Shown in pieces: positions 6,763 to 59,265 of a stretch of 64,000 bases of DNA. Within the stretch, counting starts at the first letter, position 1; each line of letters starts with the position of its first letter. A model generated the notes under the pieces. The model ran no database searches and was not told where the DNA came from. It saw nothing but the letters and a program-made list of their open reading frames with translations. Origin of the DNA: Lachnospiraceae bacterium (GTDB taxonomy: Bacteria; Bacillota; Clostridia; Lachnospirales; Lachnospiraceae); the NCBI GenBank assembly GCA_017460885.1, contig JAFUAB010000042.1, positions 1 through 64,000 on the forward strand, read 5' to 3'. A program made the translations under genes and the position numbers.

Positions 6763-6795
6763 GAGAGGATCCCCTGAGGGTCCTCTCTTTTTTTG
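6763..6795 (+). terminator. Rho-independent terminator after the surface protein gene
   Basis: A GAGAGGA-T-CCC / GGG-T-CCTCTC stem (6763-6773 with 6778-6787) is followed by a run of seven T. It lies 18 nt after the stop codon. Confidence 0.85.
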
Positions 6796-6822
6796 ACACT
6801 CGGGGACGGAGTCACGGTGTCA
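6794..6822 (+). repeat. 29-nt GGGGACGG palindromic element, arm type TGACAC
   Basis: Arms TGACAC (6794-6799) and GTGTCA (6817-6822) flank a core containing CGGGGACGGAGTCA, followed by TTTTGAC. It is one of the dispersed family also found at 8059, 10870, 16404, 31731, 31762, 36092, 44834, 59206 and 59237. This copy directly abuts the T-run of the terminator. Confidence 0.75.
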
Positions 6823-6840
6823 TTTTGACAAACCGGTTAC

Positions 6841-6930
6841 ATTCCGATGCAGATAACCACCCCCAATGCTACTTCGATGCAGATAACTACCCTTGATTCT
6901 ACTTTGACGCAGATAACTGCCCCTCGATAC
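6841..6930. repeat. Three tandem 30-bp repeats
   Basis: Three units of exactly 30 bp (6841-6870, 6871-6900, 6901-6930) share GATGCAGATAAC or GACGCAGATAAC at the same phase, followed by C-rich stretches. Elsewhere the units differ at several positions. They sit between the element at 6794 and the promoter region of the GH43 gene at 7111. No function is evident; three units without separate spacers do not make a CRISPR array. Confidence 0.65.
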
Positions 6931-7010
6931 ACCGTTACAATACGCACAAAACAAGCGGAAAATATATGTAGTATTTTGATAGTTGCAGGTTTCGGCATCA
7001 TATGATATTC

Positions 7011-7028
7011 TTTTAGAAGATACTAAAA
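7011..7028. promoter_or_regulatory. Candidate operator upstream of the GH43 gene
   Basis: TTTTAG-N6-CTAAAA is a perfect 6-6-6 palindrome. It begins 4 nt downstream of a -10-like TATGAT (7001-7006), where a bound repressor would block transcription. The same architecture recurs at 9199-9216, and one-mismatch versions occur at 9073, 11013 and 11137. Binding by the ArsR-like regulator encoded at 8085-9002 is an inference from location. Confidence 0.55.
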
Positions 7029-7110
7029 TAATTTGGATAAATAAAAACAATATTCAATTAGCTCTTACAGCAGATAAGAGATTTATAAGAAGTATTGAGG
7101 AGAAATAAAT

Positions 7111-8061
7111 ATGGATGCAAATTTCGATTACCTGAAGCCCTGGATATTTCAGAGGGCTGATCCTTTTGTGACCCGATATGGGGATTATTATTACTTCACG
7201 GCGTCGGTTCCGGAGTATGACCGCATAGTGCTGCGCAGGTCTAAAACGTTGACCGGCCTGTCTGATTCCGAAGAGCGGATACTTTGGACATGCCATGAGA
7301 GCGGTCCCATGAGCAAGCATATCTGGGCGCCCGAGATGCACTATGTGTTCGGCAGGTATTATATTTATTTTGCCGGCGGAGAGAAAGATGACATCTGGAA
7401 GATCCGTCCTTACGTGCTGGAGTGTACGGGGCAGGATCCGTACGCAGATCCGTGGATCGAAGCAGGCCCGATGCGGTGTGCAGATGACGACGAGTTCTCG
7501 TTCAGGGCTTTTTCGCTGGATGCGACGATATTTGAGGATGTCGGAGAGTATTACTACGTCTGGGCGGAAAAGGTAGGCGTTGGCAAACAGATCAGCAACC
7601 TTTACATAGCTAAGATGGAAAGCGCCTGCAAGCTGAAGACCGTGCAGGTTCTGCTCACGACACCCGATTATGACTGGGAAAGGATCGGCTTTTGGGTTAA
7701 CGAGGGTCCCGGAGTGATCAGACGCGGTGACAACCTGTACCTGACCTATTCGGCCAGTGAGACCGGCGCGGATTACTGCGTGGGTATGCTGAGTGCAAAG
7801 AGCGGAACAGACTTGCTTGATCCTCTGAACTGGACCAAGGAGAGACACCCGGTGCTTCAGACTGATGCTTCGATAGGCCTGTACGGCCCCGGACACAATT
7901 CTTTCGTAAAGGACGAAGACGGGCGTGATATTATGGTCTATCATGCGCGTACCGAGTCCAAAATAGAAGGCGATCCGTTGTATAACCCGAATCGCCATGC
8001 ATTTTTGATGTTAGTGAACTGGGACGAGAATGATCGTCCGGTGTTCAGATATCGAAAGTGA
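7111..8061 (+). CDS. Cytoplasmic GH43 family glycosidase (probable alpha-L-arabinofuranosidase or arabinosidase)
   Basis: The 316-residue protein has no signal peptide and is close to a bare five-bladed GH43 catalytic domain. The three expected acidic residues can be placed: Asp17 in RADPFV (base), Asp137 in SLDATIF (pKa modulator) and Glu198 in NEGPGV (acid). Hallmark blade motifs such as IWAPEMHY are present. GH43 enzymes remove arabinose or xylose from plant glycans. The neighbouring endo-arabinanase and GH51 gene make arabino-oligosaccharides the likely substrate. GAGGAG at 7097-7102 supports the ATG. The stop codon TGA (8059-8061) is the end of a 29-nt palindromic element. Confidence 0.85.
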   Translation: MDANFDYLKPWIFQRADPFVTRYGDYYYFTASVPEYDRIVLRRSKTLTGLSDSEERILWTCHESGPMSKHIWAPEMHYVFGRYYIYFAGGEKDDIWKIRPYVLECTGQDPYADPWIEAGPMRCADDDEFSFRAFSLDATIFEDVGEYYYVWAEKVGVGKQISNLYIAKMESACKLKTVQVLLTTPDYDWERIGFWVNEGPGVIRRGDNLYLTYSASETGADYCVGMLSAKSGTDLLDPLNWTKERHPVLQTDASIGLYGPGHNSFVKDEDGRDIMVYHARTESKIEGDPLYNPNRHAFLMLVNWDENDRPVFRYRK

Positions 8062-8087
8062 CCTACTGACCCCGTCCCCGAGGGTCA
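8059..8087 (-). repeat. 29-nt GGGGACGG element shared by two convergent stop codons
   Basis: Read on the minus strand it starts TGACCC, contains CGGGGACGG and ends AGGTCA. Its left end (plus strand TGA 8059-8061) is the stop codon of the GH43 gene. Its right end (TCA 8085-8087) is the complement of the stop codon of the regulator gene. The element therefore fills the whole convergent junction and could act as a two-way transcript end. Confidence 0.75.
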
Positions 8088-10869: not shown

Positions 10870-10898
10870 TGACACCCGGGGACGGAGTCAGAGTGTCA
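10870..10898 (+). repeat. 29-nt GGGGACGG element, arm type TGACAC
   Basis: Perfect arms TGACAC (10870-10875) and GTGTCA (10893-10898) flank a CGGGGACGGAGTCA core. It begins directly after the TGA stop of the endo-arabinanase gene (10867-10869). Confidence 0.75.
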
Positions 10899-11012
10899 TT
10901 TTACACTTCCTCCGCCACGTCTGTGCCGTGCCACATTCCCATCACGGGAGAAGGCAGGCATCCGGCAGACAGTATATTTCAAAAACTAATAACGTAATCC
11001 ACCACAAAAATA

Positions 11013-16403: not shown

Positions 16404-16432
16404 TGGATCACGGGGACGATTCTTCTGATCCA
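16404..16432 (+). repeat. 29-nt GGGGACGG element, arm type TGGATCA
   Basis: Arms TGGATCA (16404-16410) and TGATCCA (16426-16432) are perfectly complementary around CGGGGACGATTCTTC (one change in the usual GGGGACGG core). It starts with the base after the TAA stop of the GH51 gene. Confidence 0.75.
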
Positions 16433-31730: not shown

Positions 31731-31789
31731 TGGATCACGGGGACGGTTCTTTTGATCCGATTGGATCACAGGGACGGTTCTGCTGATCC
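31731..31789 (+). repeat. Tandem pair of 29-nt GGGGACGG elements, arm type TGGATCA
   Basis: Copy one begins TGGATCA at 31731, directly after the TAG stop, and copy two at 31762, giving a 31-nt period. Each has a GATCC-containing right arm (31753-31758 and 31784-31789). The second core reads AGGGACGG. The pair occupies the space where the ribosome site of the next gene would be expected. Confidence 0.75.
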
Positions 31790-31796
31790 GTTTCCC

Positions 31797-34404: not shown

Positions 34405-34444
34405 TCCCCCGCGGTATACAAAAATCGAAATAAATGATAAAATC

Positions 34445-34579: not shown

Positions 34580-34594
34580 AATAAGGAGTTAATC

Positions 34595-36091
34595 ATGAGA
34601 GAAAGCGGTATTTTATTTCCTATATTTTCAATCCCATCCAAATTCGGTATAGGATGCTTTTCCAAAGAGGCTTATGAGTTTGTGGATTTTCTGTATGGTG
34701 CGGCAGTGGGTTATTGGCAGATCCTGCCTGTGGGACCCACCGGTTACGGCAATTCTCCTTACCAGCCGTTTTCCGCTTTTGCGGGCAATCCCTATTTCAT
34801 ATCTCCCGAAGACCTGATCGAGGAGGGATTGTTGACGTGGGATGAGTGCAATGAGTATGACTTCGGCTCCGATGAGCAAAGGGTTGACTACGGTGCAATG
34901 TATGAGAATCGCGATAAGCTCCTGAAGAAGGCCTTTGAGCGGTTCACGGAGAAGGCCTCCGATGAGGATAAAAAGGCATACAAAGCCTTTCTCAGGAAGG
35001 AAGAGGACTGGCTTGTTGACTATGCACTTTTTACCGCGATAAAGGCCTCACGGGGCGGCGCGAGCTGGCTCACATGGGAGGACGGACTGAAAAAGAGAAC
35101 CCCGGATGCTCTTAAGAAGATATCGGGGGAGCTTAAGGACGATATAGAGTTTGTATATTTCAAGCAGTATGAATTTGACAAACAGTGGCACAAGCTTCGT
35201 AAATATGCAAACGAGAAGAATGTCAAGATCATAGGAGATCTGCCTTTTTACGTATCGCTTGACAGTGCAGACTGCTGGTCGCATCCCGAGGTTTTCCGGA
35301 TGGATAAAAACCTGGATCCCAAGGTCGTGGCCGGGTGTGCGCCCGATGCCTTTTCCAGAACGGGACAGCTTTGGGGCAATCCGATATATGACTGGGATGC
35401 CCAGAAGAAGGCCGGATATGACTGGTGGGTACGTCGCATCCGCCGGAATTATGAGTTTTACGACGTGATCAGGATCGATCATTTCCATGGATTCTGTGAG
35501 TATTATGCGGTACCCTACGGCGATGAGACCGCCGAGAACGGCAAGCTGCACAAGGGACCGGGCATGGATCTTTTCAACGCGCTTAAGAAGGAGATCGGCG
35601 AGCTGAGGATCATTGCTGAGGATCTGGGGAACAATACACCGGAGAACGAGGCACTGCTTAAGGATTCCGGATTCCCGGGAATGAAGGTGCTGCAGTACGG
35701 CTTCACCAGCTGGGACAGCTATTACGTAAATCACAGACATATCAATAACTGTGTGGTATATACCGGTACCCATGACAATACCCCTACCAGGGCATGGGTA
35801 GAAGAGATAAATGAGGGAGAGAGGGATTTCTGCCGCAGATATATCAATTCACTGAACAGCGATTACGGTCAGCTGGTGTGGGATATCATCAGGGAAGCGT
35901 ACAGATCCGTGGCCGATCTGTGCATAATCCCGCTGCAGGATTATCTCTGCCTCGGACGTGAGGCGAGACTCAATACACCGGGAACCTCCGAGGGCAACTG
36001 GGAGTGGAGGCTTCGTCCCAATTTCCTGTCAGAGGATCTGAAGAGGAGCATCAGGGGACTCACCGAGCTGTATTCCCGTGTTCCCCGGTAA
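34595..36091 (+). CDS. malQ: 4-alpha-glucanotransferase (amylomaltase)
   Basis: The 498-residue protein is full length for GH77. Signature regions are GILFPIFSIPSKFGIG, GPTGYGNSPYQ, IGDLPFYVSLDSAD, the nucleophile Asp in RIDHFHGF, the acid Glu in IAEDLG and GTHDNTPTR. It transfers maltosyl and longer units between alpha-1,4-glucans in the cytoplasm during starch, glycogen or maltose metabolism. AAGGAG at 34583-34588 is 6 nt before ATG 34595. In-frame starts further upstream would translate the 59-bp palindromic repeats and are rejected. The gene stands alone among unrelated neighbours. Its TAA is followed directly by a 29-nt element. Confidence 0.93.
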   Translation: MRESGILFPIFSIPSKFGIGCFSKEAYEFVDFLYGAAVGYWQILPVGPTGYGNSPYQPFSAFAGNPYFISPEDLIEEGLLTWDECNEYDFGSDEQRVDYGAMYENRDKLLKKAFERFTEKASDEDKKAYKAFLRKEEDWLVDYALFTAIKASRGGASWLTWEDGLKKRTPDALKKISGELKDDIEFVYFKQYEFDKQWHKLRKYANEKNVKIIGDLPFYVSLDSADCWSHPEVFRMDKNLDPKVVAGCAPDAFSRTGQLWGNPIYDWDAQKKAGYDWWVRRIRRNYEFYDVIRIDHFHGFCEYYAVPYGDETAENGKLHKGPGMDLFNALKKEIGELRIIAEDLGNNTPENEALLKDSGFPGMKVLQYGFTSWDSYYVNHRHINNCVVYTGTHDNTPTRAWVEEINEGERDFCRRYINSLNSDYGQLVWDIIREAYRSVADLCIIPLQDYLCLGREARLNTPGTSEGNWEWRLRPNFLSEDLKRSIRGLTELYSRVPR

Positions 36092-36120
36092 TGACACCCG
36101 GGGACGGAGTCAGGGGTTCA
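36092..36120 (+). repeat. 29-nt GGGGACGG element after malQ
   Basis: Left arm TGACAC (36092-36097), CGGGGACGGAGTCA core and right arm GGTTCA (imperfect), followed by TTTTG. It begins with the base after the malQ stop codon. Confidence 0.7.
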
Positions 36121-36150
36121 TTTTGCATCGTCATATGATTCAACGAAAGA

Positions 36151-37920: not shown

Positions 37921-37923
37921 CGG

Positions 37924-39084
37924 ATGTCGGGGAATATGCTTGATTATCTTCAGGAATTCGGAGATATCCCTTTTTCACAAAGACATTTCTGTACCGCGGA
38001 TGCCATCCTTCTGAGTCAGCTTGTTTATTGTAAATTTGACGGGCTTATAATGGGCGATGATCCCGTATATATGAAGGATCTTTTGAACGATCCGGAGCTG
38101 GACGGGCTCTTTTCCGATCCCAAATACGAACGTGATAACAAAAATCTCTTTGCCAGGATGACGATGGGACGAAGGTTCTGCGATCTTCGGCTTTCGGAAT
38201 ATGTCAATATCGTGGATAAGGAGACGGAAACCCAGTTTTCGGCGATAACATTTACATTGCCGGAAGATGTATGCTTTGTTGCTTTCCGGGGAACCGACGA
38301 AAGTCTGGTGGGCTGGAAAGAGGATATCAATCTTTCGTTTATGGATGAGGTTCCGGGACAGAATTATTCCGTGATGTATCTTGAGGAGGCAGCATCCCGG
38401 ATAAAGGGGGACTTCTATGTCGGAGGTCATTCCAAGGGTGGTCACCTGGCGATATATTCTTCCATGCATTCGCCCGAACAGCTGCAGAACAGGCTCATCA
38501 ATATCTACTGTCTGGACGGCCCCGGCTTTATGGAAAAAATGGTTGACCGCGAGGGCTATGGGAGGATCAGGGACAGGATCGTCAAGCTGATACCGCAGTC
38601 CTCTCTTATCGGACTGCTGCAGGAAAAGGATAACAACTACAGCGTGGTCAGGAGCAGTACGTGGGGTCTTCACCAGCACAACATGTACACCTGGCAGATC
38701 GTAAACGGAGAGCCGGAACCGGATATACTGAGAGACGGATCCAGATTTGCCGCGAATACGATCAACAGCTGGATGCTTCAGCTGGATAAGGAGCATCGCG
38801 AGAGATCAGCAGATGTGATCTATCAGGTGCTTAACAGCTGTGAAGTCGATAACCGGGTTGATTTCATGTCCAATTTCACCGGCAATATGGGGCAGGTGCT
38901 GACAGCGTTCAGGGAGCTGGATCCCGAGATGGCGGAGCTTTTGAGGGGTCTGATGAATTCTCTGATGGGTGACGCCAAACAGAATCTCAGAACGGAAGTG
39001 GAAACCGAGGTTGTGGCACCGGTGCAGGACTGGATAGACAGCCACTTCCCCGACTGGATAGATAAACTAAAAGGAAAGAAGTAA
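37924..39084 (+). CDS. Mbeg1-like / DUF2974 alpha/beta-hydrolase protein
   Basis: The 386-residue protein contains FVAFRGTDESLVGWKEDIN, GGHSKGGHLAIYSS with a putative nucleophile Ser170, and YCLDGPGF. This set identifies the lipase-3-like Mbeg1/DUF2974 family, common in Firmicutes with unproven substrates. There is no signal peptide; the N-terminus (MLDYLQEFGDIPFSQ, NxxDAILLSQLVY) is family-typical. It lies between an ABC exporter and a thioesterase gene with 3- and 2-nt gaps, so the three are one operon, which would fit a role near lipids. Confidence 0.8.
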   Translation: MSGNMLDYLQEFGDIPFSQRHFCTADAILLSQLVYCKFDGLIMGDDPVYMKDLLNDPELDGLFSDPKYERDNKNLFARMTMGRRFCDLRLSEYVNIVDKETETQFSAITFTLPEDVCFVAFRGTDESLVGWKEDINLSFMDEVPGQNYSVMYLEEAASRIKGDFYVGGHSKGGHLAIYSSMHSPEQLQNRLINIYCLDGPGFMEKMVDREGYGRIRDRIVKLIPQSSLIGLLQEKDNNYSVVRSSTWGLHQHNMYTWQIVNGEPEPDILRDGSRFAANTINSWMLQLDKEHRERSADVIYQVLNSCEVDNRVDFMSNFTGNMGQVLTAFRELDPEMAELLRGLMNSLMGDAKQNLRTEVETEVVAPVQDWIDSHFPDWIDKLKGKK

Positions 39085-39086
39085 AA

Positions 39087-39809
39087 ATGTACACAATAGA
39101 AAGAACCGTGGCCTTCAGCGAGACGGGCCCCGACAACCGTATCAAGATCACCAATCTGCTGGATTACTACCAGGATGTCTGCACGTTTCAATCCGAGGAT
39201 CTGGGTATCGGAACAAGGTACCTCAGAGAACGCGGGATCGGATGGGTTGCAAGTTCCTGGCAGGTAATAGTGAACCGCTACCCCGAACTTGATGAAAAGA
39301 TCCGAGTGGGTACCGCACCTTATGAATTTAAAGCTGCGATGGGAATGCGTAATTTCCGTATGGAGACCATGGACGGTGAGGTATTGTCCGTAGCCAATTC
39401 CATATGGTCAATGATCAATATCGAGTCCAAGATGCTGATCCGTGCCCCGAAGGAACTGATGGAAACATATACACTCGAGGAAAAGCTTGACATGGATTAT
39501 GCTCCGCGCAAGATCACCGATCCGACAGAGCTTACCGCTCTTCCTCCGGTGACAGTGCAGTACCATCATCTGGATTCGAACGGACACGTAAACAATGCCC
39601 AGTATGTTGCTATCGCCGAGGATCTGTTTCCCGAGATACGTAGAGCCCGGCAGATCCGTGTGGAGTACAGATCAAGCGCCCGGCCGGGCGATCTGATCAT
39701 GCCTTACATAGCTCACGATGAAGCTGCAGGTACCTGTACGATAGTACTTGCCGATACCGGCAGCAAACCCTATGTTCTGATAGAATGTGTCACCGGAACG
39801 GTTCTGTAA
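39087..39809 (+). CDS. Acyl-ACP thioesterase
   Basis: The 240-residue protein is a double hot-dog thioesterase. Features include LLDYYQDVCTFQSEDLGIG and GIGWVASSWQVIVNRYP in the first half, and YHHLDSNGHVNNAQYV with the conserved His-Asn-Asn in the second. It matches the bacterial FatA/FatB-like family (PF01643), which releases fatty acids from acyl carrier protein. It starts 2 nt after the preceding gene within its ribosome site context (AAAGGAAAGAAG). No signal peptide. Confidence 0.87.
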   Translation: MYTIERTVAFSETGPDNRIKITNLLDYYQDVCTFQSEDLGIGTRYLRERGIGWVASSWQVIVNRYPELDEKIRVGTAPYEFKAAMGMRNFRMETMDGEVLSVANSIWSMINIESKMLIRAPKELMETYTLEEKLDMDYAPRKITDPTELTALPPVTVQYHHLDSNGHVNNAQYVAIAEDLFPEIRRARQIRVEYRSSARPGDLIMPYIAHDEAAGTCTIVLADTGSKPYVLIECVTGTVL

Positions 39810-39824
39810 ACGCGAGGATTGACA

Positions 39825-40688
39825 GTGAATTTATTACCGGGAAAATCATACAGTTTAACAGTAGTCAAAAAAGTAGATTTCGGCATTTATCTGGCACAGA
39901 CAAAGGATGCGGAGGCTTCGGAGCGTGTACTCCTGCCCGCAAAACAGGTGCCCGGGGGAACCCGGACCGGAGACATACTTGAGGTCTTTCTTTATCTCGA
40001 TTCGGGGGATCGTCTCATTGCCACTACACGCACCCCGTATATCCGTCTCGGAGAGGTGGCGCGGCTTCGTGTTTCCCAGATCAACAAAACGGGAGCCTTT
40101 CTCGACTGGGGGCTCGAAAAAGATCTGTTTATGCCATATGCCGAGCAGACCTATACGATACATGAGGGAGATGAGGTCCTGGCTGCGATGTATACCGACA
40201 AGAGCGGCAGACTCTGCGCAACCATGAATGTTTATCCCTGTCTGAAGACCGGCAGTCCGTATATCATCGGAGACGAGGTACAGGGCAGGGCGTATGAAGA
40301 CAGTGAGAGATTCGGTATATTTGTAGCCGTTGACGATATTTATCAGGGACTTGTGCCCAGACGTGAATGCTACGGAGATATCAGCCTCGGCCAGGATATC
40401 AAAGCCAGAGTCATTCAGGTTCGTGAGGACGGCAAGCTTGATCTGAGCGTGCGCCGCAAAGCTTATGAACAGATCGGCGATGATGCGGATAAGATACTTG
40501 AGATCATCAGAAGCTATGACGGCGCGATGCCCTTTACGGATAAAGCGTCGCCTGAGGTTATCAAGCTCCATACCGGCATGAGCAAGAACGAATTTAAACG
40601 AGCTGTCGGACATCTTCTCAAGGAAAGACTGATCGTGAAGACCGAAACCGCACTGATCCTTGCCGAAAGACATATGCAGACCGATTAA
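39825..40688 (+). CDS. cvfB: CvfB-like S1-domain RNA-binding protein
   Basis: The 287-residue protein starts MNLLPGKSYSLTVVKKVDFG. It has successive S1-like modules (VARLRVSQINKTGAFLDWG; EVQGRAYEDSERFGIFVAVDD) and a C-terminal winged-helix-like domain (TGMSKNEFKRAVGHLLKERLI). This is the order of Staphylococcus CvfB and Bacillus YitL. The family binds RNA and influences virulence gene expression in staphylococci; its molecular role is unclear. GTG 39825 was chosen: GAGG at 39814-39817 is 7 nt upstream, whereas the TTG at 39819 is adjacent to it. Confidence 0.83.
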   Translation: MNLLPGKSYSLTVVKKVDFGIYLAQTKDAEASERVLLPAKQVPGGTRTGDILEVFLYLDSGDRLIATTRTPYIRLGEVARLRVSQINKTGAFLDWGLEKDLFMPYAEQTYTIHEGDEVLAAMYTDKSGRLCATMNVYPCLKTGSPYIIGDEVQGRAYEDSERFGIFVAVDDIYQGLVPRRECYGDISLGQDIKARVIQVREDGKLDLSVRRKAYEQIGDDADKILEIIRSYDGAMPFTDKASPEVIKLHTGMSKNEFKRAVGHLLKERLIVKTETALILAERHMQTD

Positions 40689-40727
40689 TCAGCGTTTCCA
40701 CAAAACGTAAATACCGTCGCTGTTTTG

Positions 40728-40756
40728 TTGAAAATGCAACAATCTTTTGTTATAAT
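40728..40756 (+). promoter_or_regulatory. Consensus promoter with overlapping palindromes before the PucR-type gene
   Basis: TTGAAA (40728-40733), 17 nt, then TGT-TATAAT (40748-40756) make a very good extended -10 promoter. The -35 overlaps TTGTTG-N6-CAACAA (40725-40742), and TTGCA-N6-TGCAA lies downstream near 40772-40787. Both palindromes could be autoregulatory operator sites. Confidence 0.65.
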
Positions 40757-40807
40757 GTGTACATTATTGGGGTTGCATTTTTGTGCAAAATTTAGAAGGG
40801 GGTATTT

Positions 40808-41896
40808 ATGGTTTCCGGTCAGATACTTCAGAATACGATCGACGGACTAAAGGCTATCGCCCGCGTAGATTTTTGCGTAATGGATACCGAGGGCAATACT
40901 TTGTCCACTACCTTGGACAGTCTGGAGAAATGCAAAAAGGCGGCGAACGAATTCGCCTCCAGCTATGCGGATTCCCAGGAAATACAGGGATTTCAGTATT
41001 TTAAGGTTTTCGACGAGTCTACACTTGAATACATACTGATAGCCGCAGGAGACGGCGAGGATGTTTATCTTGCCGGTAAAATGGCCGCTTTTCAGCTGCA
41101 GAGCCTGCTGACGGCATATAAGGAAAGATTCGATAAGGATAATTTTATCAAGAATCTGCTCCTGGATAACCTGCTGCTTGTGGATATATACAGCCGATCC
41201 AAAAAGCTTCATATCCGTACCGACGCCAGGCGGGTTGTTATAATTGTGGAAACGATCGCTGACAAGGACAGCAATACGCTGGAGCTTCTCAGGATGCATA
41301 TGGGTGCCAGCAGTCTTGATTTTGTGACTGCGGTGGATGAGCACAATGTAATTGTTGTCAAGGATGTATCCGAGTGCGACAGCGATAAGGATATCGACCG
41401 GATCACCAAAAATATGGTTGAATACCTCAAATCCGAGGGACAGAAGAATGTCCGTATCGCCTATGGCACGACGGTCGGCGAGATCAAGGAGGTCAGCCGT
41501 TCCTATAAGGAAGCCAAGATGGCTATGGACGTCGGCAAGATATTCTTTGATGAGCGCAATGTGATTGCGTATTCCGAGCTGGGGATAGGACGTCTGATCT
41601 ATCAGCTTCCGATACCTCTTTGCAAAATGTTCATCAAGGAGATTTTTGACGGTCAGAGTCCGGATGACCTGGATGAGGAGACGATCACCACCATCAACAA
41701 GTTTTTTGAAAACAGCCTGAATGTGTCGGAGACCTCCAGACAGCTTTTTATACACAGAAATACACTTGTTTACAGGCTGGATAAGCTTCAGAAATCCACT
41801 AATCTTGACATCAGGGTGTTCGAGGACGCGATCACCTTCAAGATAGCATTGATGGTGGTAAAATATATGAACTATATGGAGAAGTTTGAGTTCTAA
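40808..41896 (+). CDS. PucR/CdaR-family transcriptional regulator
   Basis: The 362-residue protein has an N-terminal sensor-like region beginning MVSGQILQNTIDGLKAIARV, reminiscent of diacid-recognition domains. A middle GGDEF-like fold follows (RIAYGTTVGEIKEVSRSYKEAKMAM). The C-terminal PucR HTH (NVSETSRQLFIHRNTLVYRLDKLQKSTNLDIR) is diagnostic. Such proteins usually activate metabolic operons in response to small organic acids or nucleobases. Here the downstream neighbours are cell division genes, so the target is unclear. AAGGGGG precedes the ATG, and a strong promoter lies about 50 nt upstream. Confidence 0.82.
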   Translation: MVSGQILQNTIDGLKAIARVDFCVMDTEGNTLSTTLDSLEKCKKAANEFASSYADSQEIQGFQYFKVFDESTLEYILIAAGDGEDVYLAGKMAAFQLQSLLTAYKERFDKDNFIKNLLLDNLLLVDIYSRSKKLHIRTDARRVVIIVETIADKDSNTLELLRMHMGASSLDFVTAVDEHNVIVVKDVSECDSDKDIDRITKNMVEYLKSEGQKNVRIAYGTTVGEIKEVSRSYKEAKMAMDVGKIFFDERNVIAYSELGIGRLIYQLPIPLCKMFIKEIFDGQSPDDLDEETITTINKFFENSLNVSETSRQLFIHRNTLVYRLDKLQKSTNLDIRVFEDAITFKIALMVVKYMNYMEKFEF

Positions 41897-41949
41897 GGGA
41901 AGGCAATGCCGATTGATCAGGCATTTCCCTGTAAAAAGAGGATTTAGTT

Positions 41950-42702
41950 GTGGCAGAGATTAAGAGACGTAAAGTCGCCAAACCATCCCCCTACATTATT
42001 GAGATCAATAATGTGACCAAGATTTACCGCGACAGCTCAAATGCAGCCGCGGGAGGGCAGCACGCACTTCACAATGTCAGCATTAAGATAGAACCCGGAG
42101 AATTTGTTTTTATCGTAGGTGAAAGCGGTTCCGGCAAATCGACGATGATAAAGCTTCTGATGCGGGAACTGACGGCTACAGAAGGCACCATCAATGTCAT
42201 GGGTTATGATCTGGGCCATATCAGACACCGCAAGATCCCGAAGTTCAGACGTAATATCGGTATCGTTTTTCAGAATTTCAGGCTGCTGCCCGACAGAAAC
42301 GTGTATGAGAACGTGGCCTTTGCACAGCGCATAATACAGAAATCCAACAAAGATATCCGCAGAAACGTTCCGGCCGTGCTCGCGAGAGTCGGGCTTGCAG
42401 GTAAGTATAAAGCAAAGATCAAGCATCTTTCCGGTGGCGAACAGCAGAGAGTTGCCATTGCCAGGGCGCTTGTCAACAAGCCGTCGATCCTTCTTTGCGA
42501 CGAGCCCACCGGTAATCTTGATCCCAAGACCACATGGGAGATCATGAAGCTGCTTGAGACCATCAATGAGCAGGGAACTACAGTGATCGTTGTCACACAC
42601 AACGCCGATATAGTAAACTCTATGCAGAAGAGAGTTATTACACTTGATAAGGGCGTTGTGGTCAGCGACGAAGAGAAAGGAGGGTATATCGATGAAGATT
42701 AG
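41950..42702 (+). CDS. ftsE: Cell division ATP-binding protein FtsE
   Basis: The 250-residue ABC ATPase carries Walker A GESGSGKST, FtsE-typical VFQNFRLLPDRNVYENVAFA, signature LSGGEQQRVAIARAL, Walker B ILLCDEPTGNLDP and switch His in VVTHNADIV. It starts at GTG 41950 and has about 20 extra residues (VAEIKRRKVAKPSPY) before the usual FtsE start. With FtsX it forms the membrane complex that activates peptidoglycan hydrolases at the division site. The ftsX ATG lies 11 nt before the ftsE stop. Confidence 0.93.
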   Translation: MAEIKRRKVAKPSPYIIEINNVTKIYRDSSNAAAGGQHALHNVSIKIEPGEFVFIVGESGSGKSTMIKLLMRELTATEGTINVMGYDLGHIRHRKIPKFRRNIGIVFQNFRLLPDRNVYENVAFAQRIIQKSNKDIRRNVPAVLARVGLAGKYKAKIKHLSGGEQQRVAIARALVNKPSILLCDEPTGNLDPKTTWEIMKLLETINEQGTTVIVVTHNADIVNSMQKRVITLDKGVVVSDEEKGGYIDED

Positions 42703-43588
42703 TTCATTCTTCTATACGCTCCATCAGGGATTCAAAAACATATTCAGAAACAAGCTGTTTACACTTGCTTCTCTTGCAACCATCGGAGCGTGCCTGTTCC
42801 TTTTCGGCATCATGTATTCCATACTGGCCAACTTCCAGTATATTATCAAGAATGCCGAGAACGGAGTCAGTGTTACCGTATTTTTTGATGAGGGTCTCGA
42901 TCAGGCATCGATAGACAGTATAGGTGATCTGATCAAAAACAGTCCCGAGGTGGATCATGTGGTATATGTTTCCGCCGAGGAAGCGTGGGCCAGCTTCAAA
43001 GAGGATTATCTCGGAGAGTACGCAGACGGGTTTACCGAGAATCCACTGGCTGACTCCGAGCATTATGAGATCTATCTCAGCGATGTTTCCAAACAGCAGC
43101 AGCTGGTAGATATGCTTACCGGACTTACAGGAGTGCGCAGGGTAAATCAGAGTGAGCTGACCGCGACTACACTGACCGGTATCAACAGGCTGGTGGCTTA
43201 CATTTCCATTGGAATTATAGTGATACTGCTGGCAGTATCGGTCTTCCTGATCAGCAATACCATTACGATTGGTATCTCTGTCAGACGCGAGGAGATCGAG
43301 ATCATGAAATATATCGGAGCGACGGACTATTTTGTCAGGGCCCCCTTTGTTGTGGAGGGTATGCTGATCGGTATCATCGGTACGATCATTCCGCTGCTGC
43401 TGATCTATTTCCTCTATGATGTAGTTATCAGGTTCATCCAGGAAAGATTTTCGGTGCTTTCACAGCTCCTCACTTTCCTGTCGGTAAATGAGATTTTCCG
43501 CATACTTGTGCCGGTATCGTTTCTGATCGGTCTCGGTATCGGTTTTGTAGGAAGTATCGTAACGGTGCGCAAGCATCTCAGAGTTTGA
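42692..43588 (+). CDS. ftsX: Cell division protein FtsX
   Basis: The 298-residue membrane protein has four predicted helices (one near residues 20-45, three after residue 165). A large extracellular loop carries VSVTVFFDEGLDQASIDSIGDLI, and ISVRREEIEIMKYIGATDYFVRAPF is the conserved coupling segment. ATG 42692 has AAAGGAGGG upstream and overlaps ftsE by 11 nt. The extracellular loop is expected to contact the coiled coil of the PcsB-like hydrolase encoded immediately downstream. Confidence 0.92.
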   Translation: MKISSFFYTLHQGFKNIFRNKLFTLASLATIGACLFLFGIMYSILANFQYIIKNAENGVSVTVFFDEGLDQASIDSIGDLIKNSPEVDHVVYVSAEEAWASFKEDYLGEYADGFTENPLADSEHYEIYLSDVSKQQQLVDMLTGLTGVRRVNQSELTATTLTGINRLVAYISIGIIVILLAVSVFLISNTITIGISVRREEIEIMKYIGATDYFVRAPFVVEGMLIGIIGTIIPLLLIYFLYDVVIRFIQERFSVLSQLLTFLSVNEIFRILVPVSFLIGLGIGFVGSIVTVRKHLRV

Positions 43589-43589
43589 T

Positions 43590-44831
43590 ATGTCGTTCAG
43601 GTATGGATCATTTGCCCGGATAAGTAAGCTCCGGGCAATTTCATATATTCTGGTTCTCACACTGGCACTGCCGGTGTTCTTCGGTTTACCCCTTCCAGCG
43701 TATGCCACGCCCACCAATGCCAGCATACAGGCCAAGCAAAGTGAGGTGGCAAAGGATAAGGAGCAGGTCAACAGTCTCAAAAACGGTCTTTCCGATGTAA
43801 AGAAGATAAAGCAGCAGCTGGAGTCTCAGAAAAGTGATCTGAATGCTTATATTGCGCAATTGGATGCCCAGCTTACCGATATGGCCGAAAAGATCGCCGA
43901 ACTGAATGAGCTTATTACAACCAAGGAGGCTGAAATAGTGCAGGCTACCGACGATCTTGCCGAAGCCGAGCGTATCCAGAAGGAGCAGTATGAGGCGATG
44001 AAAAAACGCATCAAGTTCATGTACGAATCCGGTGATTCGATGTACATGGATATGCTCGTTGGAGACGGCAGCTTTTCCGATAAGATCAGTAAAGCAGATT
44101 ATATAGAGATGTTATCTGCATATGACCGCCGCAAGCTGGATGAATATGTGGAAACCACCGAATACGTTGCCGCCTGTAAGGCTGCGCTCGAATCCGAGAA
44201 GGAAGTGCTTGATGCAGCCAAAGAGACGGTTGAAGAAGAACAGAAAAATGTAAATGAACTGATGGATGCGAAGACGGAGCAGGTAAATTCCGTATCCGCC
44301 GAGATCGCAGATAAGGAAGCCCAGATCAAGGAATACGAGAACAGTATAGCCGAGCAGAATGCCGCCATCGCAGCTCTGGAAAAGGCCATAGCGGCCGAGA
44401 TCGCGGCGTTGGAGGAAGCAAACAGGCGTCAGTATAACGGAGGAGTTTTTGCCTGGCCGTGTCCGTCTTATACCAGGATTTCGGATGATTATGGCAATCG
44501 TGTGCATCCCATACTCGGGGTTGAGAAATTCCACAACGGGATCGATCTGGCAGCGCCATACGGATCATCGATACTGGCAGCTTATGACGGCGATGTTGTT
44601 GCGGCCGATTATTCATCCTCCATGGGAAATTATGTGATGATAAGTCACGGCAGCGGCATCTATACTATCTATATGCACGCCTCCAGTCTGAAGGTTTCCA
44701 AGGGACAGAGCGTAAGCAAAGGACAGGTAATAGCCGCAGTGGGTTCCACCGGACGTTCAACCGGTAATCACCTGCATTTCTCGGTCCGCAAGGACGGTAA
44801 CTACGTCAGTCCGTGGGGCTACCTGAAGTAA
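43590..44831 (+). CDS. PcsB/EnvC-like coiled-coil M23 peptidoglycan hydrolase
   Basis: The 413-residue protein begins with a signal peptide (about residues 1-39, ending AYA). A long antiparallel coiled coil spans residues 45-275 (KEQVNSLKNGLSDVKKIKQQ, EKIAELNELITTKEAEIV). The C-terminal M23 domain has HNGIDLAAPYG, YMHASS and NHLHFSV, which supply the zinc ligands. FtsX-regulated hydrolases have exactly this order: the coiled coil binds FtsX and opens the enzyme for cutting septal wall. It starts 1 nt after the ftsX stop codon. Confidence 0.88.
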   Translation: MSFRYGSFARISKLRAISYILVLTLALPVFFGLPLPAYATPTNASIQAKQSEVAKDKEQVNSLKNGLSDVKKIKQQLESQKSDLNAYIAQLDAQLTDMAEKIAELNELITTKEAEIVQATDDLAEAERIQKEQYEAMKKRIKFMYESGDSMYMDMLVGDGSFSDKISKADYIEMLSAYDRRKLDEYVETTEYVAACKAALESEKEVLDAAKETVEEEQKNVNELMDAKTEQVNSVSAEIADKEAQIKEYENSIAEQNAAIAALEKAIAAEIAALEEANRRQYNGGVFAWPCPSYTRISDDYGNRVHPILGVEKFHNGIDLAAPYGSSILAAYDGDVVAADYSSSMGNYVMISHGSGIYTIYMHASSLKVSKGQSVSKGQVIAAVGSTGRSTGNHLHFSVRKDGNYVSPWGYLK

Positions 44832-44833
44832 AA

Positions 44834-44862
44834 TGACACTCGGGGACGGAGTCAGTGGTTCA
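44834..44862 (+). repeat. 29-nt GGGGACGG element, arm type TGACAC
   Basis: TGACAC (44834-44839), CGGGGACGGAGTCAG core, right arm GGTTCA, then TTTTGACC. It starts 2 nt after the stop codon of the M23 hydrolase gene. Confidence 0.7.
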
Positions 44863-44895
44863 TTTTGACCCAACATGCCGGACGAAGGGATTACA

Positions 44896-46125
44896 ATGGA
44901 AGAAAACAGAACAAAGCACAGATTCGGCGCCGGCTTTATTGCCGGCCTTTGCATCGGTCTTACCGTTGCAGTAATAGTGGGCGCAATCTTTTCAATGAGA
45001 CTCAGGGACTATAATGATCCTACAGGGGCGCTTGATGCGGCTGCCGCGCAGAAGCTGTCGCTCATATCGAGTATCATCGATAAGAACTTCTACAATTATA
45101 CGGAAGATGAGCTTACGGTTGAGGACAAGCGTGACGGCATGTATCGCGGCCTTATGGATTCGCTGGGTGACAGATACGCTGATTACTTTACAGCGGAGGA
45201 ACTGCGGGAACTGATGATCGATAACGAAGGGGTATATTTCGGAATAGGAGCATATATCTCTTTTGATGAAGAGCTCAATTATCCTTATCTGACCGGTATT
45301 ATGGAGGGAACTCCGGCTGAAAAAGCGGGACTGCGCTCCGGGGATGTTCTGGTGGAGATAGACGGAACATCGGCCTACGGAATGACATCATCGGATGCGG
45401 CGAGCATTGTCAGGGGAGACGAGGGCACGGTCGTTCACCTCACGATCTACCGTGACGGAGAAGATGATTATCTCGGATTTGACGTTACCAGAGGCAAGGT
45501 TGCATCCACAACCGTAGTCAGCGAAATGAAGGAGGATGACATTGCCTATATCCGTATCGTGGAATTTGATCTGACTACGGTTGAACAGTTTACCAAAGCA
45601 TATACCGAGGTCAGAAACAGCGGTGCCAAAGCCCTGATCCTGGATCTGAGGGGTAATACCGGAGGACTGGTGTACAGTGTTGAGGAGATCGGCAGACAGA
45701 TCCTTCCGGAGGGAGTGATATATTATAAGGAAAACAGCTCCGGCGAGCGGGAAGAGCACTACTGTGACGGCTCCCATGAGATCGATATCCCGCTGATAGT
45801 CCTGATCAACGGAATGTCTGCCAGCGCTTCGGAGATCCTCAGCGGTGCGATACGGGATTATGGCATCGGTACCCTGCTGGGTACAAAAACATACGGAAAA
45901 GGTATCGTACAGAACACGATCAAACTGTCAGACGGTTCGGCAGTCAAAATGACAACGGGAGCTTATTTTTTACCAAAAGGTATCAATATACAGGGTACGG
46001 GAATCGAACCCGACATAGAGGTGGAATTTGATCCGGACGCATATTATGATGAGGGATTCGATAATCAGCTGGATGCCGCGATCAAAGAAATTAAGAAGAT
46101 GATAGGGCAGCAGGGTAATGAATAA
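44896..46125 (+). CDS. Carboxy-terminal processing protease (S41, CtpA-like)
   Basis: The 409-residue protein has an N-terminal transmembrane helix (residues 12-36). A PDZ domain follows (GIMEGTPAEKAGLRSGDVLVEIDG). The S41 protease domain has nucleophile Ser310 in MSASASEIL and general base Lys335 in KTYGKGIVQ, 25 residues apart as in known CtpA proteases. It is anchored with its protease outside the membrane and cleaves protein C-termini; in related bacteria it processes wall enzymes. ATG 44896 has a GAAGGG site; an in-frame ATG at 44875 is less likely. Its position after the FtsEX-hydrolase genes suggests a linked role. Confidence 0.88.
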   Translation: MEENRTKHRFGAGFIAGLCIGLTVAVIVGAIFSMRLRDYNDPTGALDAAAAQKLSLISSIIDKNFYNYTEDELTVEDKRDGMYRGLMDSLGDRYADYFTAEELRELMIDNEGVYFGIGAYISFDEELNYPYLTGIMEGTPAEKAGLRSGDVLVEIDGTSAYGMTSSDAASIVRGDEGTVVHLTIYRDGEDDYLGFDVTRGKVASTTVVSEMKEDDIAYIRIVEFDLTTVEQFTKAYTEVRNSGAKALILDLRGNTGGLVYSVEEIGRQILPEGVIYYKENSSGEREEHYCDGSHEIDIPLIVLINGMSASASEILSGAIRDYGIGTLLGTKTYGKGIVQNTIKLSDGSAVKMTTGAYFLPKGINIQGTGIEPDIEVEFDPDAYYDEGFDNQLDAAIKEIKKMIGQQGNE

Positions 46126-46225
46126 AAGAGTGGTGATGATTGAAAAAACCTCGGATTAGTTGTATCATATACTTTGTGTCTTTTTAAGTAAGTTCTTGAT
46201 GTTTTATTAAGAGAGGAGAATTATC

Positions 46226-56462: not shown

Positions 56463-56473
56463 AAAAGAAATTC

Positions 56474-56502
56474 AGCCCCGCGCCAGGCGCGGGGCTTTTT
56501 TG
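56474..56502 (+). terminator. Strong rho-independent terminator after the importer operon
   Basis: GCCCCGCGCC and GGCGCGGGGC are perfectly complementary with one base between, followed by TTTTTT. The next gene starts only 14 nt later, so the T-run lies just before its ribosome site. Confidence 0.9.
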
Positions 56503-56516
56503 TAACAGGAGATTCT

Positions 56517-57278
56517 ATGAGAGTGATATTTTGGGCGGGAGATTCGACGAATACCTGCAACAAGGCAAATAAATATCCGCAGACCGGGATCGCCCAGGCT
56601 TTTGACAGATATACGGCTTTTGATGTGGTGGTCTACGATCATGCGATCAACGGGAGAAGTACCAGGAGCTTTATAGATCAGGGCAGACTGGCATTTATAT
56701 ATGACGAGATCAAAGAAGGTGATTTCCTTTTCATCCAGTTTGGACACAATGATGAAAAAGAAACCGATCTGGCCAGGTACACTGATCCGGATACGGATTT
56801 TATAGAGAACCTCGGTAAGTTTGTAAATGTTGCCAGAAATAAGGGAGCCATCCCACTGTTCATCACACCGCTTGAACGCAGGGAATTCAAGGATGATCAT
56901 GTGACCCTTGAGGATTCACAGCACACTCCCTATGTACAAGCGTATCATAAGGCGGCTGAGAGGTTCGGAGTACCGGTTGCGGATCTGTTTAAGGCAAGCC
57001 GGGAATTTCTGGAGAAGACAGGTGATGAGCCGTCCAAAAGGTATTATATGCATGTTAAGCCGGGAGAGGCGTTCTGGCTGCCGGAGGGATTGTCTACCGA
57101 CAATACGCACCTTAAATACGAGGGTGCGATGAAGTTCGGAGAGTTGATCGCACGGGAATTGATCAAACTCGGAGCTCCTTTTTCCACGCTGGTGGATGAG
57201 GCTGTACTTCGTGATCTGGATTCCGTGTACGATTCGAATCTTCTGGAAGACGGACTCAGAGAAGAATATAAGCAGTGA
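56517..57278 (+). CDS. CE12-like rhamnogalacturonan acetylesterase (SGNH hydrolase)
   Basis: The 253-residue protein has the SGNH blocks: nucleophile Ser10 in WAGDSTNT, Gly in NGRSTRSF, Asn in FGHNDEK, and the Asp-x-x-His pair in TDNTHLK. This is the order of rhamnogalacturonan acetylesterases, which remove acetyl groups from pectin. No signal peptide, so it would act on imported oligosaccharides. ACAGGAG lies 6 nt upstream. The stop codon overlaps the next start (TGATG). Confidence 0.87.
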   Translation: MRVIFWAGDSTNTCNKANKYPQTGIAQAFDRYTAFDVVVYDHAINGRSTRSFIDQGRLAFIYDEIKEGDFLFIQFGHNDEKETDLARYTDPDTDFIENLGKFVNVARNKGAIPLFITPLERREFKDDHVTLEDSQHTPYVQAYHKAAERFGVPVADLFKASREFLEKTGDEPSKRYYMHVKPGEAFWLPEGLSTDNTHLKYEGAMKFGELIARELIKLGAPFSTLVDEAVLRDLDSVYDSNLLEDGLREEYKQ

Positions 57279-59230
57279 TGAACGATATGAATTTTCAAAA
57301 CCCTATATTATTTGCCGATTATTCGGACCCTGATGTTACCAGGGTCGGGGACATGTTCTTTATGACGGCATCCAGCTTTAACTATACTCCGGGGCTGCCG
57401 ATCCTCAGATCCCGGGATCTGGTGAACTGGACACTGACCGGATATGCGGTCAGGGAGCTTGGTCAGACATTTGATTATCCCAGACATTCCGAAGGAATAT
57501 GGGCGCCCGCCATCAGATACTACAATGATACCTTTTACATTTATTACGGTATGCCCGACGAAGGGTTGTATGTGGTGAGAGGGCGTTTTCAGACAACCGA
57601 GGGCTTTCGAAATCATTGTGTCGATCCCGTGCAAGGTGACGGATCTGAAGACCGTGGATATGAGTTCGATCATGGATGCGACCTGCACATTCCGGGATTC
57701 ATACCGATTATATGGGACAGACCGGTATGCGTGCTGGAGGGAAGGGGACTTATAGATCCCTGCCCGTTTATAGACGAAGACGGCAGGTTCTGGCTCGTGC
57801 ATGCATATGCAAAAAGCAGGATCGGTTTCAAGAGCATACTCGGAATGGTTGAGCTTGACGCTCAGGGGATAAAGGCGATATCTCCAGATCACATCATCTT
57901 TAACGGTAATCTGGTTTCATTGCCTTCTGACGGAAACCCGGATTCCGGAGAAAGAGGTCCCGGACTACAGGCTTCATCGGATGCCGGCAGGGCAGGAGAT
58001 GAGAGAGCTTTTAACGGTATGATACACCGGGAGGACTATGTACACAGATTTGCGGGTTCGAAGGCAAAGGAGCCCGACGATAACAATGCACCTGCGATCA
58101 CGATAGAAGGCCCGAAGGTTTATAAGCGCGACGGATATATTTATATACTTGCTCCCGCGGGCGGTGTCCGTTACGGCTGGCAGCTCGCGCTAAGGTCAAA
58201 GAATATCCATGGTCCCTATGAATGCAGAGTTGTGATGAGACAGGGCTCGAGCATAGTCAACGGCCCTCATCAGGGAGGTCTGGTATCCTATAACCGAAGT
58301 GACTGGTTCATACATTTCCAGGATCTTGGTCCGTATGGCAGGGTCTGCCATCTGCAGCCGGTGGTCTGGAATGACAGCTGGCCGGTGATCGGAGAGCCTG
58401 CCGGTAAAGGCACATGGGGAGAGCCTGTATCGGGCGGGTCAGTCGCAGAGATATCTCAGAATCGGTTCTCAACATATCATGACTATCAATGGCTGGGCAA
58501 TTATTCCGAAGAATATTTTGCCGTTTTTAACCCGGACGAAAATGTCGTTTCCGAAGATATGTCATATCTTTTCGGCGGCAACAGTCCATATCTGGGAAAT
58601 CATGGTAAATACAGACTGAAGCTCCAGGCTCTCAACAGTCAGGGAGCGGATCCGGTGCTTTGGAAATGTCCGAACGTGCTGACGCGAAAGCCTGACCGCA
58701 GGGAGTTTGAAGTGACTGTAGCATTTAAAGTAAATAAGCTCCAGACCGGTGATCGTATCGGTATCACGTTTATGGGAGGAGAGTACGCCTTTCTGGAGTG
58801 TGCAAAGAGGAAGGACGGCGGCCTGGATATCCGTTACGGCACCAGTGAAAGCATAACCGGGACCAAAGATAAAAAGGAAAACCTGAGAGTGATCGAAACG
58901 TCCGGAGCCGAAGAGACGGAGTTTATTGTTTCGATGGTCTGTCGCGAAGCCGGAAACGGAGAGAGTGCAAAGGAGTTCACTTCGGTGGAGGATTGCCATC
59001 CCGTGGCGAGCTTTAAATACATGACCGGTAAGGCTTTACCTGATGATGTGACAGTCGGGACCGGAGATGCTGCGTTCAGGGATATCGGGGAAGAGTTTAA
59101 ACCCTCCGATCATACCTGGGTCGGAGCCAGAGTGGGCGTATATGCGGTTTCTAAGGGAGTACGCGGCGGGTATGCCGTGATCGACGCCTATGAGTGGGAC
59201 GATTTTGGGTCAAAAGAACCATCCCCGTGA
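57278..59230 (+). CDS. GH43 beta-xylosidase/arabinosidase with C-terminal beta-sandwich domain
   Basis: The 650-residue protein has no signal peptide. GH43 acids are Asp17 (YSDPDV), Asp160 (LIDPCPF) and Glu277 (TIEGPKV). A C-terminal domain from about residue 420 resembles the concanavalin-A-like module of GH43 xylosidases. About 50 extra polar residues (near 215-270, including DGNPDSGERG and HRFAGSKAKEPDD) interrupt the catalytic domain before the acid Glu. ATG 57278 overlaps the upstream TGA by one base. The last residues SKEPSP and the stop codon are encoded by a 29-nt palindromic element, so the original end has been replaced. Confidence 0.85.
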   Translation: MNDMNFQNPILFADYSDPDVTRVGDMFFMTASSFNYTPGLPILRSRDLVNWTLTGYAVRELGQTFDYPRHSEGIWAPAIRYYNDTFYIYYGMPDEGLYVVRGRFQTTEGFRNHCVDPVQGDGSEDRGYEFDHGCDLHIPGFIPIIWDRPVCVLEGRGLIDPCPFIDEDGRFWLVHAYAKSRIGFKSILGMVELDAQGIKAISPDHIIFNGNLVSLPSDGNPDSGERGPGLQASSDAGRAGDERAFNGMIHREDYVHRFAGSKAKEPDDNNAPAITIEGPKVYKRDGYIYILAPAGGVRYGWQLALRSKNIHGPYECRVVMRQGSSIVNGPHQGGLVSYNRSDWFIHFQDLGPYGRVCHLQPVVWNDSWPVIGEPAGKGTWGEPVSGGSVAEISQNRFSTYHDYQWLGNYSEEYFAVFNPDENVVSEDMSYLFGGNSPYLGNHGKYRLKLQALNSQGADPVLWKCPNVLTRKPDRREFEVTVAFKVNKLQTGDRIGITFMGGEYAFLECAKRKDGGLDIRYGTSESITGTKDKKENLRVIETSGAEETEFIVSMVCREAGNGESAKEFTSVEDCHPVASFKYMTGKALPDDVTVGTGDAAFRDIGEEFKPSDHTWVGARVGVYAVSKGVRGGYAVIDAYEWDDFGSKEPSP

Positions 59231-59265
59231 TCCAAATGGATCAAAAGAACCGTCCCCGTGATCCA
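59206..59265 (-). repeat. Tandem pair of 29-nt GGGGACGG elements, reverse orientation
   Basis: Two copies, 59206-59234 (right arm TGATCCA at 59228-59234) and 59237-59265 (arms TGGATCA at 59237 and TGATCCA at 59259), repeat with a 31-nt period. The cores on the minus strand read GGGGATGG and GGGGACGG. The first supplies the last codons and stop of the upstream GH43 gene. The second ends 10 nt before the next start codon. Confidence 0.8.

What the first reader, a model, noticed from the sequence alone, without database searches (positions are those of the whole stretch)
6794..59265. Dispersed 29-nt palindromic element with fixed GGGGACGG core and co-varying arms, placed on stop codons
Ten copies were found (6794, 8059, 10870, 16404, 31731, 31762, 36092, 44834, 59206, 59237), plus a degenerate one at 60564. 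All are 29 nt. The core is nearly invariant, but the arms change together: TGACAC/GTGTCA, TGACCC/(A/G)GGTCA, TGGATCA/TGATCCA. Compensatory change means the hairpin itself is selected or is the unit of mobility. Seven insertions begin within 0-2 nt of a stop codon or supply it. This resembles REP elements spread by RAYT-type Y1 transposases, but no such gene is in the window. The elements could end or protect transcripts.
Basis: partly seen in the sequence, partly recalled or inferred. Interest (0 to 1): 0.75.

Follow-up and report, generated by a model that had tools for sequence, protein, structure and literature searches.

The report
Orphan REP-like hairpins with fixed loop
Short hairpin-forming repeats scattered through a bacterial genome look like hitch-hiking mobile DNA whose moving enzyme is found in related bacteria but was not found in this one; they share one fixed loop while the stem differs between species, and many sit exactly at the ends of genes.

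Summary
The repeats are real. A 16-base core-plus-arm pattern has 62 matches in the 3.6 Mb genome and none for the reversed pattern. They look like REP/REPIN-type non-autonomous elements in a Lachnospiraceae genome, in three classes (A: GGGGACGGAGTCA loop; B and C: GGGGACGGTTCT loop). No RAYT gene was found here or in six congeners. Some related genomes that carry the elements have RAYTs. Head-in GGGGAC pairs bracket 15 of 37 RAYT loci examined, against 0 of 30 IS200 control loci. At 16 of the 37, stems of at least 6 bp surround the loop, with 14-16 different sequences (permuted mean 1.7), so the hairpin is conserved across species. Within this genome arms match between classes but often not within class A. 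The unit is about 33 nt, because a TTTT tail belongs to it. Of 63 non-genic copies, 22 lie within 3 nt of a stop codon or supply it (2.4% expected). Two sites are empty in the relatives examined. A terminator role is not supported. The nearest published kind is the 'TIRYT'/subclass 2.1 RAYT with GGGGWSAS inverted repeats, for which the 2018 paper reported no REP-like sequences. I rate it a new variant of a known kind.

The parts
6794..6826 (+). class A element (29 nt + TTTT), placed right after the T-run of a terminator-like hairpin
8059..8087 (-). class A element between convergent ORFs; its two ends supply the TGA stop of both
10870..10902 (+). class A element immediately after a TGA stop
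16404..16432 (+). class B element (core GGGGACGA) immediately after a TAA stop; core variant, so outside the 69-copy count
31731..31759 (+). class B element immediately after a TAG stop; first of a direct pair with 31-nt period
31762..31790 (+). class B element (core AGGGACGG), second of the direct pair
36092..36124 (+). class A element immediately after a TAA stop; arms TGACAC/GGTTCA do not fully match; absent at the orthologous site of 4 relatives examined
44834..44866 (+). class A element 2 nt after a TAA stop; absent at the orthologous site of 6 relatives examined
59206..59234 (-). class B element (core GGGGATGG) supplying the stop of the upstream ORF; core variant, so outside the 69-copy count
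59237..59265 (-). class B element, second of the direct pair
60564..60592 (+). degenerate class B element inside an ORF

Best explanation
These are non-autonomous REP/REPIN-type elements. Each is a ~33-nt single-strand hairpin: a 6-7 bp stem whose sequence is free to change, a nearly invariant GGGGAC(G)G loop, and a TTTT tail. They were moved in trans by HUH/Y1 transposases of the RAYT type, acting on head-in inverted pairs (REPINs) or on single units. At least two RAYT lineages seeded this genome, one for class A and one for classes B and C. Neither gene is found now, so the population is orphaned. Shown: repeat family, RAYT-hairpin association in relatives, differing stems around one loop across species, no detectable RAYT in the genome as held, empty sites in the relatives examined, head-in dimers, placement at stops. 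Inferred: that the RAYT recognises the loop, that it moved these copies, that two lineages were involved, and that the gene was lost rather than missed by assembly.
For: Genome-wide repeat: 62 vs 0 reversed. RAYTs in relatives: PF01797 in 6 of 6 tested; NF047646 above cut-off for one of four tested, the other three at 50-76.5 bits against a cut-off of 80; only PDB match 4er8 TnpArep, E 1.3e-4; HUH and Tyr invariant in 10 of 10 aligned. A RAYT match in 6 of the 16 Firmicutes genomes of the class-A scan. Head-in GGGGAC pair within 300 nt in 15 of 37 RAYT loci vs 0 of 30 IS200 loci; the reversed motif gives 2 of 37 and 0 of 30. Stems of at least 6 bp at 16 of 37 RAYT loci, 16 sequences (14 after merging those contained in another), vs permuted mean 1.7, maximum 6 in 1000. 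Bases after GGGGAC follow RAYT clade: GGGG or GGAG at 11 of 11 core-bearing loci with at least 53% identity to the G010 RAYT (two of the 11 are one locus), at 1 of 21 others, where 9 are GGTTCT and 3 one base away. Head-in dimers 35, tail-in 1, over three genomes; 15 of 18 dimers in one RAYT-bearing genome have a core spacing of exactly 49. Class-A cores 61 in G000, 14 and 16 in two congeners, 2 in another, 0 in three. Orthologous sites empty in 6 of 6 and 4 of 4 examined.
Against: No RAYT here, so the mover is inferred from relatives. The genomes of this genus are draft assemblies (82-99% complete), and a repeat-flanked gene is easily lost in assembly. Several RAYTs of the closest clade have only 2-5 perfect pairs at their own flank (L201, L202, L203/L213, L204, L210, L214), and two (L211, L212) have no GGGGAC within 450 nt. 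Only 15 of 37 RAYT loci have the head-in pair. Class-A arms often mismatch. Ten of the 16 class-A genomes have no RAYT match. No transposition or binding was observed.
Confidence: 0.85

Rival explanations
1. RNA elements (terminators or 3'-end stabilisers) selected at gene ends; the repeats serve the host rather than spreading themselves.
For: 22 of 63 non-genic copies lie within 3 nt of a stop, expected 2.4%; TTT follows 36 of 60 copies; the hairpin end nearest a gene's stop is more often the element's 5' end (18 vs 5).
Against: Single hairpins are weak (mean -8.7 kcal/mol) and far below the -17.4 terminator-like hairpin beside the 6794 copy; AAA rather than TTT follows 12 of 60 copies. Three of seven genus genomes have no class-A core. 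Tandem and head-in arrays are common. Orthologous genes examined lack the element.
Confidence: 0.1
2. The elements are still mobile in this species, moved by a RAYT missing from this assembly or on another replicon.
For: Copies are lineage-specific relative to congeners and many are identical or nearly so; draft assembly in 55 contigs.
Against: No RAYT found in any of 7 congeneric genomes held, while 87 of 392 genomes of the order have a match.
Confidence: 0.25
3. Ends of an IS200/IS605 element (classical MITE) rather than RAYT-associated elements.
For: One IS200 TnpA fragment is in the genome, at the end of contig C39.
Against: No core within one mismatch in the 1.7 kb held around it; 0 of 30 IS200 loci of relatives have a head-in pair.
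Confidence: 0.03

Closest known systems
TIRYT / TIRtrons with GGGGWSAS terminal inverted repeats (Di Nocera et al. 2013, PMC3733652) and RAYT subclass 2.1 (Quentin et al. 2018, PMC6006769)
   Same: RAYT-like HUH/Y1 proteins, at least one with a C-terminal helix-turn-helix; flanking inverted repeats with a GGGGAC-type motif; some TIRs self-complementary, some dispersed as dimers
   Different: Most here are GGGGACGG, not GGGGWSAS (some repeats at three loci are GGGGACAG). Both papers treat the flanks as TIRs, and the 2018 paper found no REP-like sequence for subclass 2.1. Here many flanks are hairpins with a fixed loop and differing stems, dispersed in dozens of copies, in genomes with and without a detected transposase
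GTAG-tagged REPs and REPINs (Nunvar 2010, PMC2817692; Bertels and Rainey 2011, PMC3116915; passages seen)
   Same: Short palindromes bracketing RAYTs; head-in dimers of fixed spacing; intergenic; singles beside doublets
   Different: The conserved tag is in the apical loop rather than at the foot of the hairpin; no GTAG
CGTC-tagged REPs (Di Nocera et al. 2013)
   Same: The complement of the core holds CGTC; the family has no dedicated transposase in its hosts
   Different: CGTC is internal, not terminal; no CCA tail; 6-7 bp stems instead of 8-9 bp; a flanking transposase is found in relatives

Membership tests
RAYT-associated REP/REPIN (works like) | short palindrome in dozens of copies, mainly intergenic | tested here: met
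   62 matches vs 0 reversed; 63 of 69 copies non-genic while 17% of positions in the same stretches are
RAYT-associated REP/REPIN (works like) | palindromes flank a RAYT gene | tested here: met
   in relatives only: 15 of 37 RAYT loci vs 0 of 30 controls; no RAYT found in this genus
RAYT-associated REP/REPIN (works like) | inverted dimers of preferred orientation and spacing | tested here: met
   head-in 35, tail-in 1 over three genomes; spacing 49 in 15 of 18 dimers of G146; in this genome 8 head-in pairs of variable spacing
GTAG REP super-family | GTAG/GTGG at the foot of the hairpin | tested here: not met
   sequence shows TGA or TG at the foot
CGTC REP super-family | unpaired terminal CGTC, 8-9 bp stem, CCA tail | tested here: not met
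   core is internal, stem 6-7 bp, tail TTTT; definition from PMC3733652
TIRYT / subclass 2.1 | flanking inverted repeat with GGGGWSAS | tested here: inconclusive
   GGGGACAG at L220, and at some repeats of L223 and L224; GGGGACGG at most others
TIRYT / subclass 2.1 | C-terminal helix-turn-helix domain | tested here: inconclusive
   over or at a Pfam cut-off for 1 of 6 RAYTs (L207), only below cut-off for L201, L205 and L228, none listed for L222 and L233
TIRYT / subclass 2.1 | position in the published tree | not tested
   reference sequences were not fetched
intrinsic terminator | stable G+C-rich hairpin followed by a U run | tested here: inconclusive
   TTT follows 36 of 60 copies, AAA 12 of 60; weak hairpin

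The most novel reading that the evidence does not exclude
A third REP super-family beside GTAG and CGTC: the recognition tag GGGGAC sits in the apical loop and is constant, while the stem is free to drift by compensatory change, so that lineages have their own stems. The RAYT would then read a loop sequence on any stem, and stem identity could be a private address that separates co-resident element populations. Orphan populations persist after loss of the enzyme.
Probability: 0.45. Interest if true: 0.6.

Novelty: new variant of a known kind. Interest (0 to 1): 0.48.

Why it matters
It turns 'TIRs' next to a large RAYT subclass into testable hairpin substrates, extends REPIN-like biology to Lachnospiraceae, and offers natural experiments: congeners with 0, 2, 14-16 or about 60 orphan class-A cores, and relatives with the enzyme. 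The fixed-loop, free-stem design makes a sharp prediction for single-strand DNA recognition by HUH transposases.

Tried and rejected
Rfam at gathering threshold: nothing in the window. CGTC-REP membership looked attractive because the core's complement holds CGTC; rejected on stem, tail and tag position. The IS200 fragment on C39 as the source: rejected. Precise target-site definition from empty sites: relatives are about 72-83% identical and the intergenic DNA does not align, so no target duplication could be read; at 36092 two further congeners with a match (G002, G003) were not examined. The motif text search in papers listed 30 of 763 papers, none of those on REPs; searches for RAYT, REPIN, TIRYT and for RAYT or REP with Firmicutes, Clostridia or Lachnospiraceae terms listed no paper describing these hairpins; this covers titles and abstract starts listed from an open-licence library. 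A paper of 2017 on RAYT groups (recalled) is not held, so overlap with it is unchecked.

Limits of the counts. The 69-copy list needs at least 20 of 29 matches to one of three reference strings and a near-exact core, so core variants such as 16404 and 59206 are outside it (added by hand only); six copies on duplicate contig C34 were dropped; genes were called by a simple codon-score script. Copies were sought only in the window and in stretches around matches of the class-wide pattern; one search shows GGGGACGGTTCT cores elsewhere in the genome (33 in all) that were not fetched, so classes B and C are under-counted. Of 37 RAYT loci, L203 and L213 are the same locus reached twice, and L206 and L223 are short matches. 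'Left/right' of RAYT genes was geometric, not by gene strand. The 30 control loci were taken as IS200 from their PF01797 scores without individual checks. In one search the G000 list mixes all classes and looser cores, the other two genomes exact class-A cores. The 61 class-A cores include those on C34; the reversed-pattern control there was 0 in 25 of 27 genomes, 2 in G001 and 1 in G003. The -3 cases (the element's own TGA is the stop) are partly automatic when an element lands in an ORF; without them 13 of 63 copies remain at 0 to +3 of a stop. An earlier count gave 16 of 18 for spacing 49 and '12+ codons'; the right figures are 15 of 18 and 8-12 codons.
Full report
OBSERVATION. The core alone is only weakly enriched in the window (8 vs 2.4 expected), but core plus left arm (TGNNNCNCGGGGACGG) has 62 matches in the 3.6 Mb genome and 0 for the reversed pattern. 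Contig C34 is 100% identical to the window contig over the 11.9 kb tested, so its copies were dropped, leaving 69 of 75 copies under the criteria. Three classes exist: A, TGACAC(T/C)CGGGGACGGAGTCAnnGTGTCA; B, TGGATCACGGGGACGGTTCTTTTGATCCA; C, TGTGTCACGGGGACGGTTCTGCCGACACA. In class A the four bases after the repeat are mostly T (29, 30, 27 and 33 of 43), after which the flank is near random, so the unit is about 33 nt; on the 5' side only the last bases before the element are biased, to A (28 of 43 at -1, 22 of 43 at -2).

ORGANISM. 

ARMS. Between classes the arms match. Inside class A they often do not: of 46 copies, TGACAC goes with GTGTCA in 18 and with GGTTCA in 9, and TGACCC goes with GTGTCA in 7.

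POSITION. 63 of 69 copies are non-genic although 17% of positions in the same stretches are; 22 of the 63 lie within -3 to +3 nt of a stop, against 2.4% of non-genic positions (702 of 29,031; binomial p about 6e-20). There are 23 stop contacts, because the 8059 copy touches two. In 10 contacts (9 copies) the element's own terminal TGA is the stop; 13 copies remain without those. The element's 5' end faces the stop in 18 contacts, its 3' end in 5. At two sites examined in congeners (72-83% identity) the element is absent: 6 of 6 at 44834, 4 of 4 at 36092; at 36092 those orthologues read on for 8-12 codons beyond the point where this ORF stops. Proximity to stops can therefore arise by insertion ending an ORF as well as by insertion after it.

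THE ENZYME. The genome has one Y1 match, a 56-residue fragment at the end of contig C39; it scores as IS200, not RAYT (65.2 bits, cut-off 55), and has no core within one mismatch in its 1.7 kb locus. None of the six other genomes of the genus has a PF01797 match at E 1e-4, and a RAYT protein finds nothing better than E 0.03 in all seven. In G010, a genome of the same family, a RAYT is bracketed by GGGGACGGGGT palindromes. A scan for the class A pattern over genome contigs gave 69 stretches; 60 are from 16 genomes titled Lachnospiraceae, Butyrivibrio or uncultured Firmicutes, and the other 9 are single hits in other phyla, probably chance. Of those 16 genomes, 6 have a RAYT match at E 0.001, five of them at 59-69% identity and one at 35%; 10 have none. 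In 392 genomes of the order, 87 have a match at E 1e-8.

ASSOCIATION. Of 37 RAYT loci (two are the same locus) 15 have a + core on the left and a - core on the right within 300 nt; of 30 IS200 loci none does, though one has a core on the left and one on the right; the reversed motif CAGGGG gives 2 of 37 and 0 of 30. Of the 37 loci, 32 have a GGGGAC within 450 nt and 16 have a perfect stem of at least 6 bp around it, with 16 stem sequences, 14 after merging those contained in another; pairing left and right flanks from different genomes gives a mean of 1.7 loci (maximum 6 in 1000 permutations). An earlier version on nearest elements gave mean stem 4.67 vs 2.96 +- 0.20, and 22 of 46 elements with at least 5 bp vs a mean of 4.9. 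The bases after GGGGAC track the enzyme: GGGG or GGAG, as in class A, at 11 of 11 core-bearing loci of at least 53% identity to the G010 RAYT (two are one locus) and at 1 of the 21 others; of those 21, 9 are GGTTCT, as in classes B and C, and 3 are one base away; one such locus (L205) carries TGTGTCA stems like class C. The enzymes keep HUH and the tyrosine in 10 of 10 aligned. The G010 RAYT matches TnpArep 4er8 (E 1.3e-4) and NF047646 over cut-off; three others tested fall below that cut-off. One of six has a C-terminal HTH at or over a Pfam cut-off. Results against this reading: several RAYTs of the closest clade have only 2-5 perfect pairs, L211 and L212 have no core nearby, and 22 of 37 loci lack the head-in pair.

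DIMERS. Neighbouring copies are head-in or direct, almost never tail-in: G000 8 head-in, 13 direct, 0 tail-in; G146 18, 4, 0; G154 9, 6, 1. In G146, which has a RAYT, 15 of 18 head-in dimers have a core spacing of exactly 49; the 10 of these that lie in fetched loci mostly share an AT-rich linker beginning TTTT. The TTTT tail of single copies in G000 would then be the remnant of such a linker, which fits the proposal for REPINs that singlets are remnants of doublets (PMC3116915, passages read). Direct pairs have spacings near the unit length (30-35 in 10 of 13 in G000, 33 in 6 of 6 in G154), so single units may also amplify.

COPY NUMBER. Class A cores (GGGGACGGRGTYA): 61 in G000, 14 and 16 in two congeners, 2 in another, 0 in three. 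The 12 relatives searched that have a RAYT of the close clade have 7-119. Of the seven non-congeneric genomes searched without a RAYT match, five have 15-32 and two have 1 and 3. Apparent orphan populations are thus common among the genomes searched.

MECHANISM. Best reading: RAYT-driven non-autonomous elements, now orphaned. A transcription-end role is possible as a side effect, but the single hairpin is weak (mean -8.7 kcal/mol against -6.1, sd 2.4, for shuffles; the terminator-like hairpin beside the 6794 copy gives -17.4).

KNOWN KINDS. Di Nocera 2013 (PMC3733652; abstract, passages and two sections read) describes TIRYTs with GGGGWSAS inverted repeats, some self-complementary and dispersed, and says CGTC REPs lack a transposase. 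Quentin 2018 (PMC6006769; [quoted passage not shown] The present data indicate that such flanks, at many RAYT loci of this order, are hairpins with a fixed loop and differing stems; that these RAYTs belong to subclass 2.1 was not tested. I found no paper describing this in the searches listed, which cover an open-licence library only.

Noticed in passing
window 34445-34562: Exact tandem pair of a 59-nt hairpin-bearing unit; this and adjoining sequence (query 124-280) recurs at 15 other listed places of the genome at 77-90% identity, a second, unrelated dispersed repeat upstream of the gene homology that begins at about 34592.
   Followed up: partly
window 227-328: Inverted repeat with 42-nt arms, 83% complementary, 18-nt spacer.
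   Followed up: no
G000 contig C34 (L237): 100% identical inverted duplicate of window 34300-46200 on another contig, probably assembly redundancy; in keeping with the 6.64% contamination estimate.
   Followed up: yes
L204 and other loci of G146 (RUG11236): REPIN-like dimers with fixed 49-nt core spacing and a mostly shared AT-rich palindromic linker.
   Followed up: partly
L223, L224: RAYT flanks whose loop itself can pair (GGGGAC-A-GTCCC); in L224 this gives a 31-nt palindrome.
   Followed up: no
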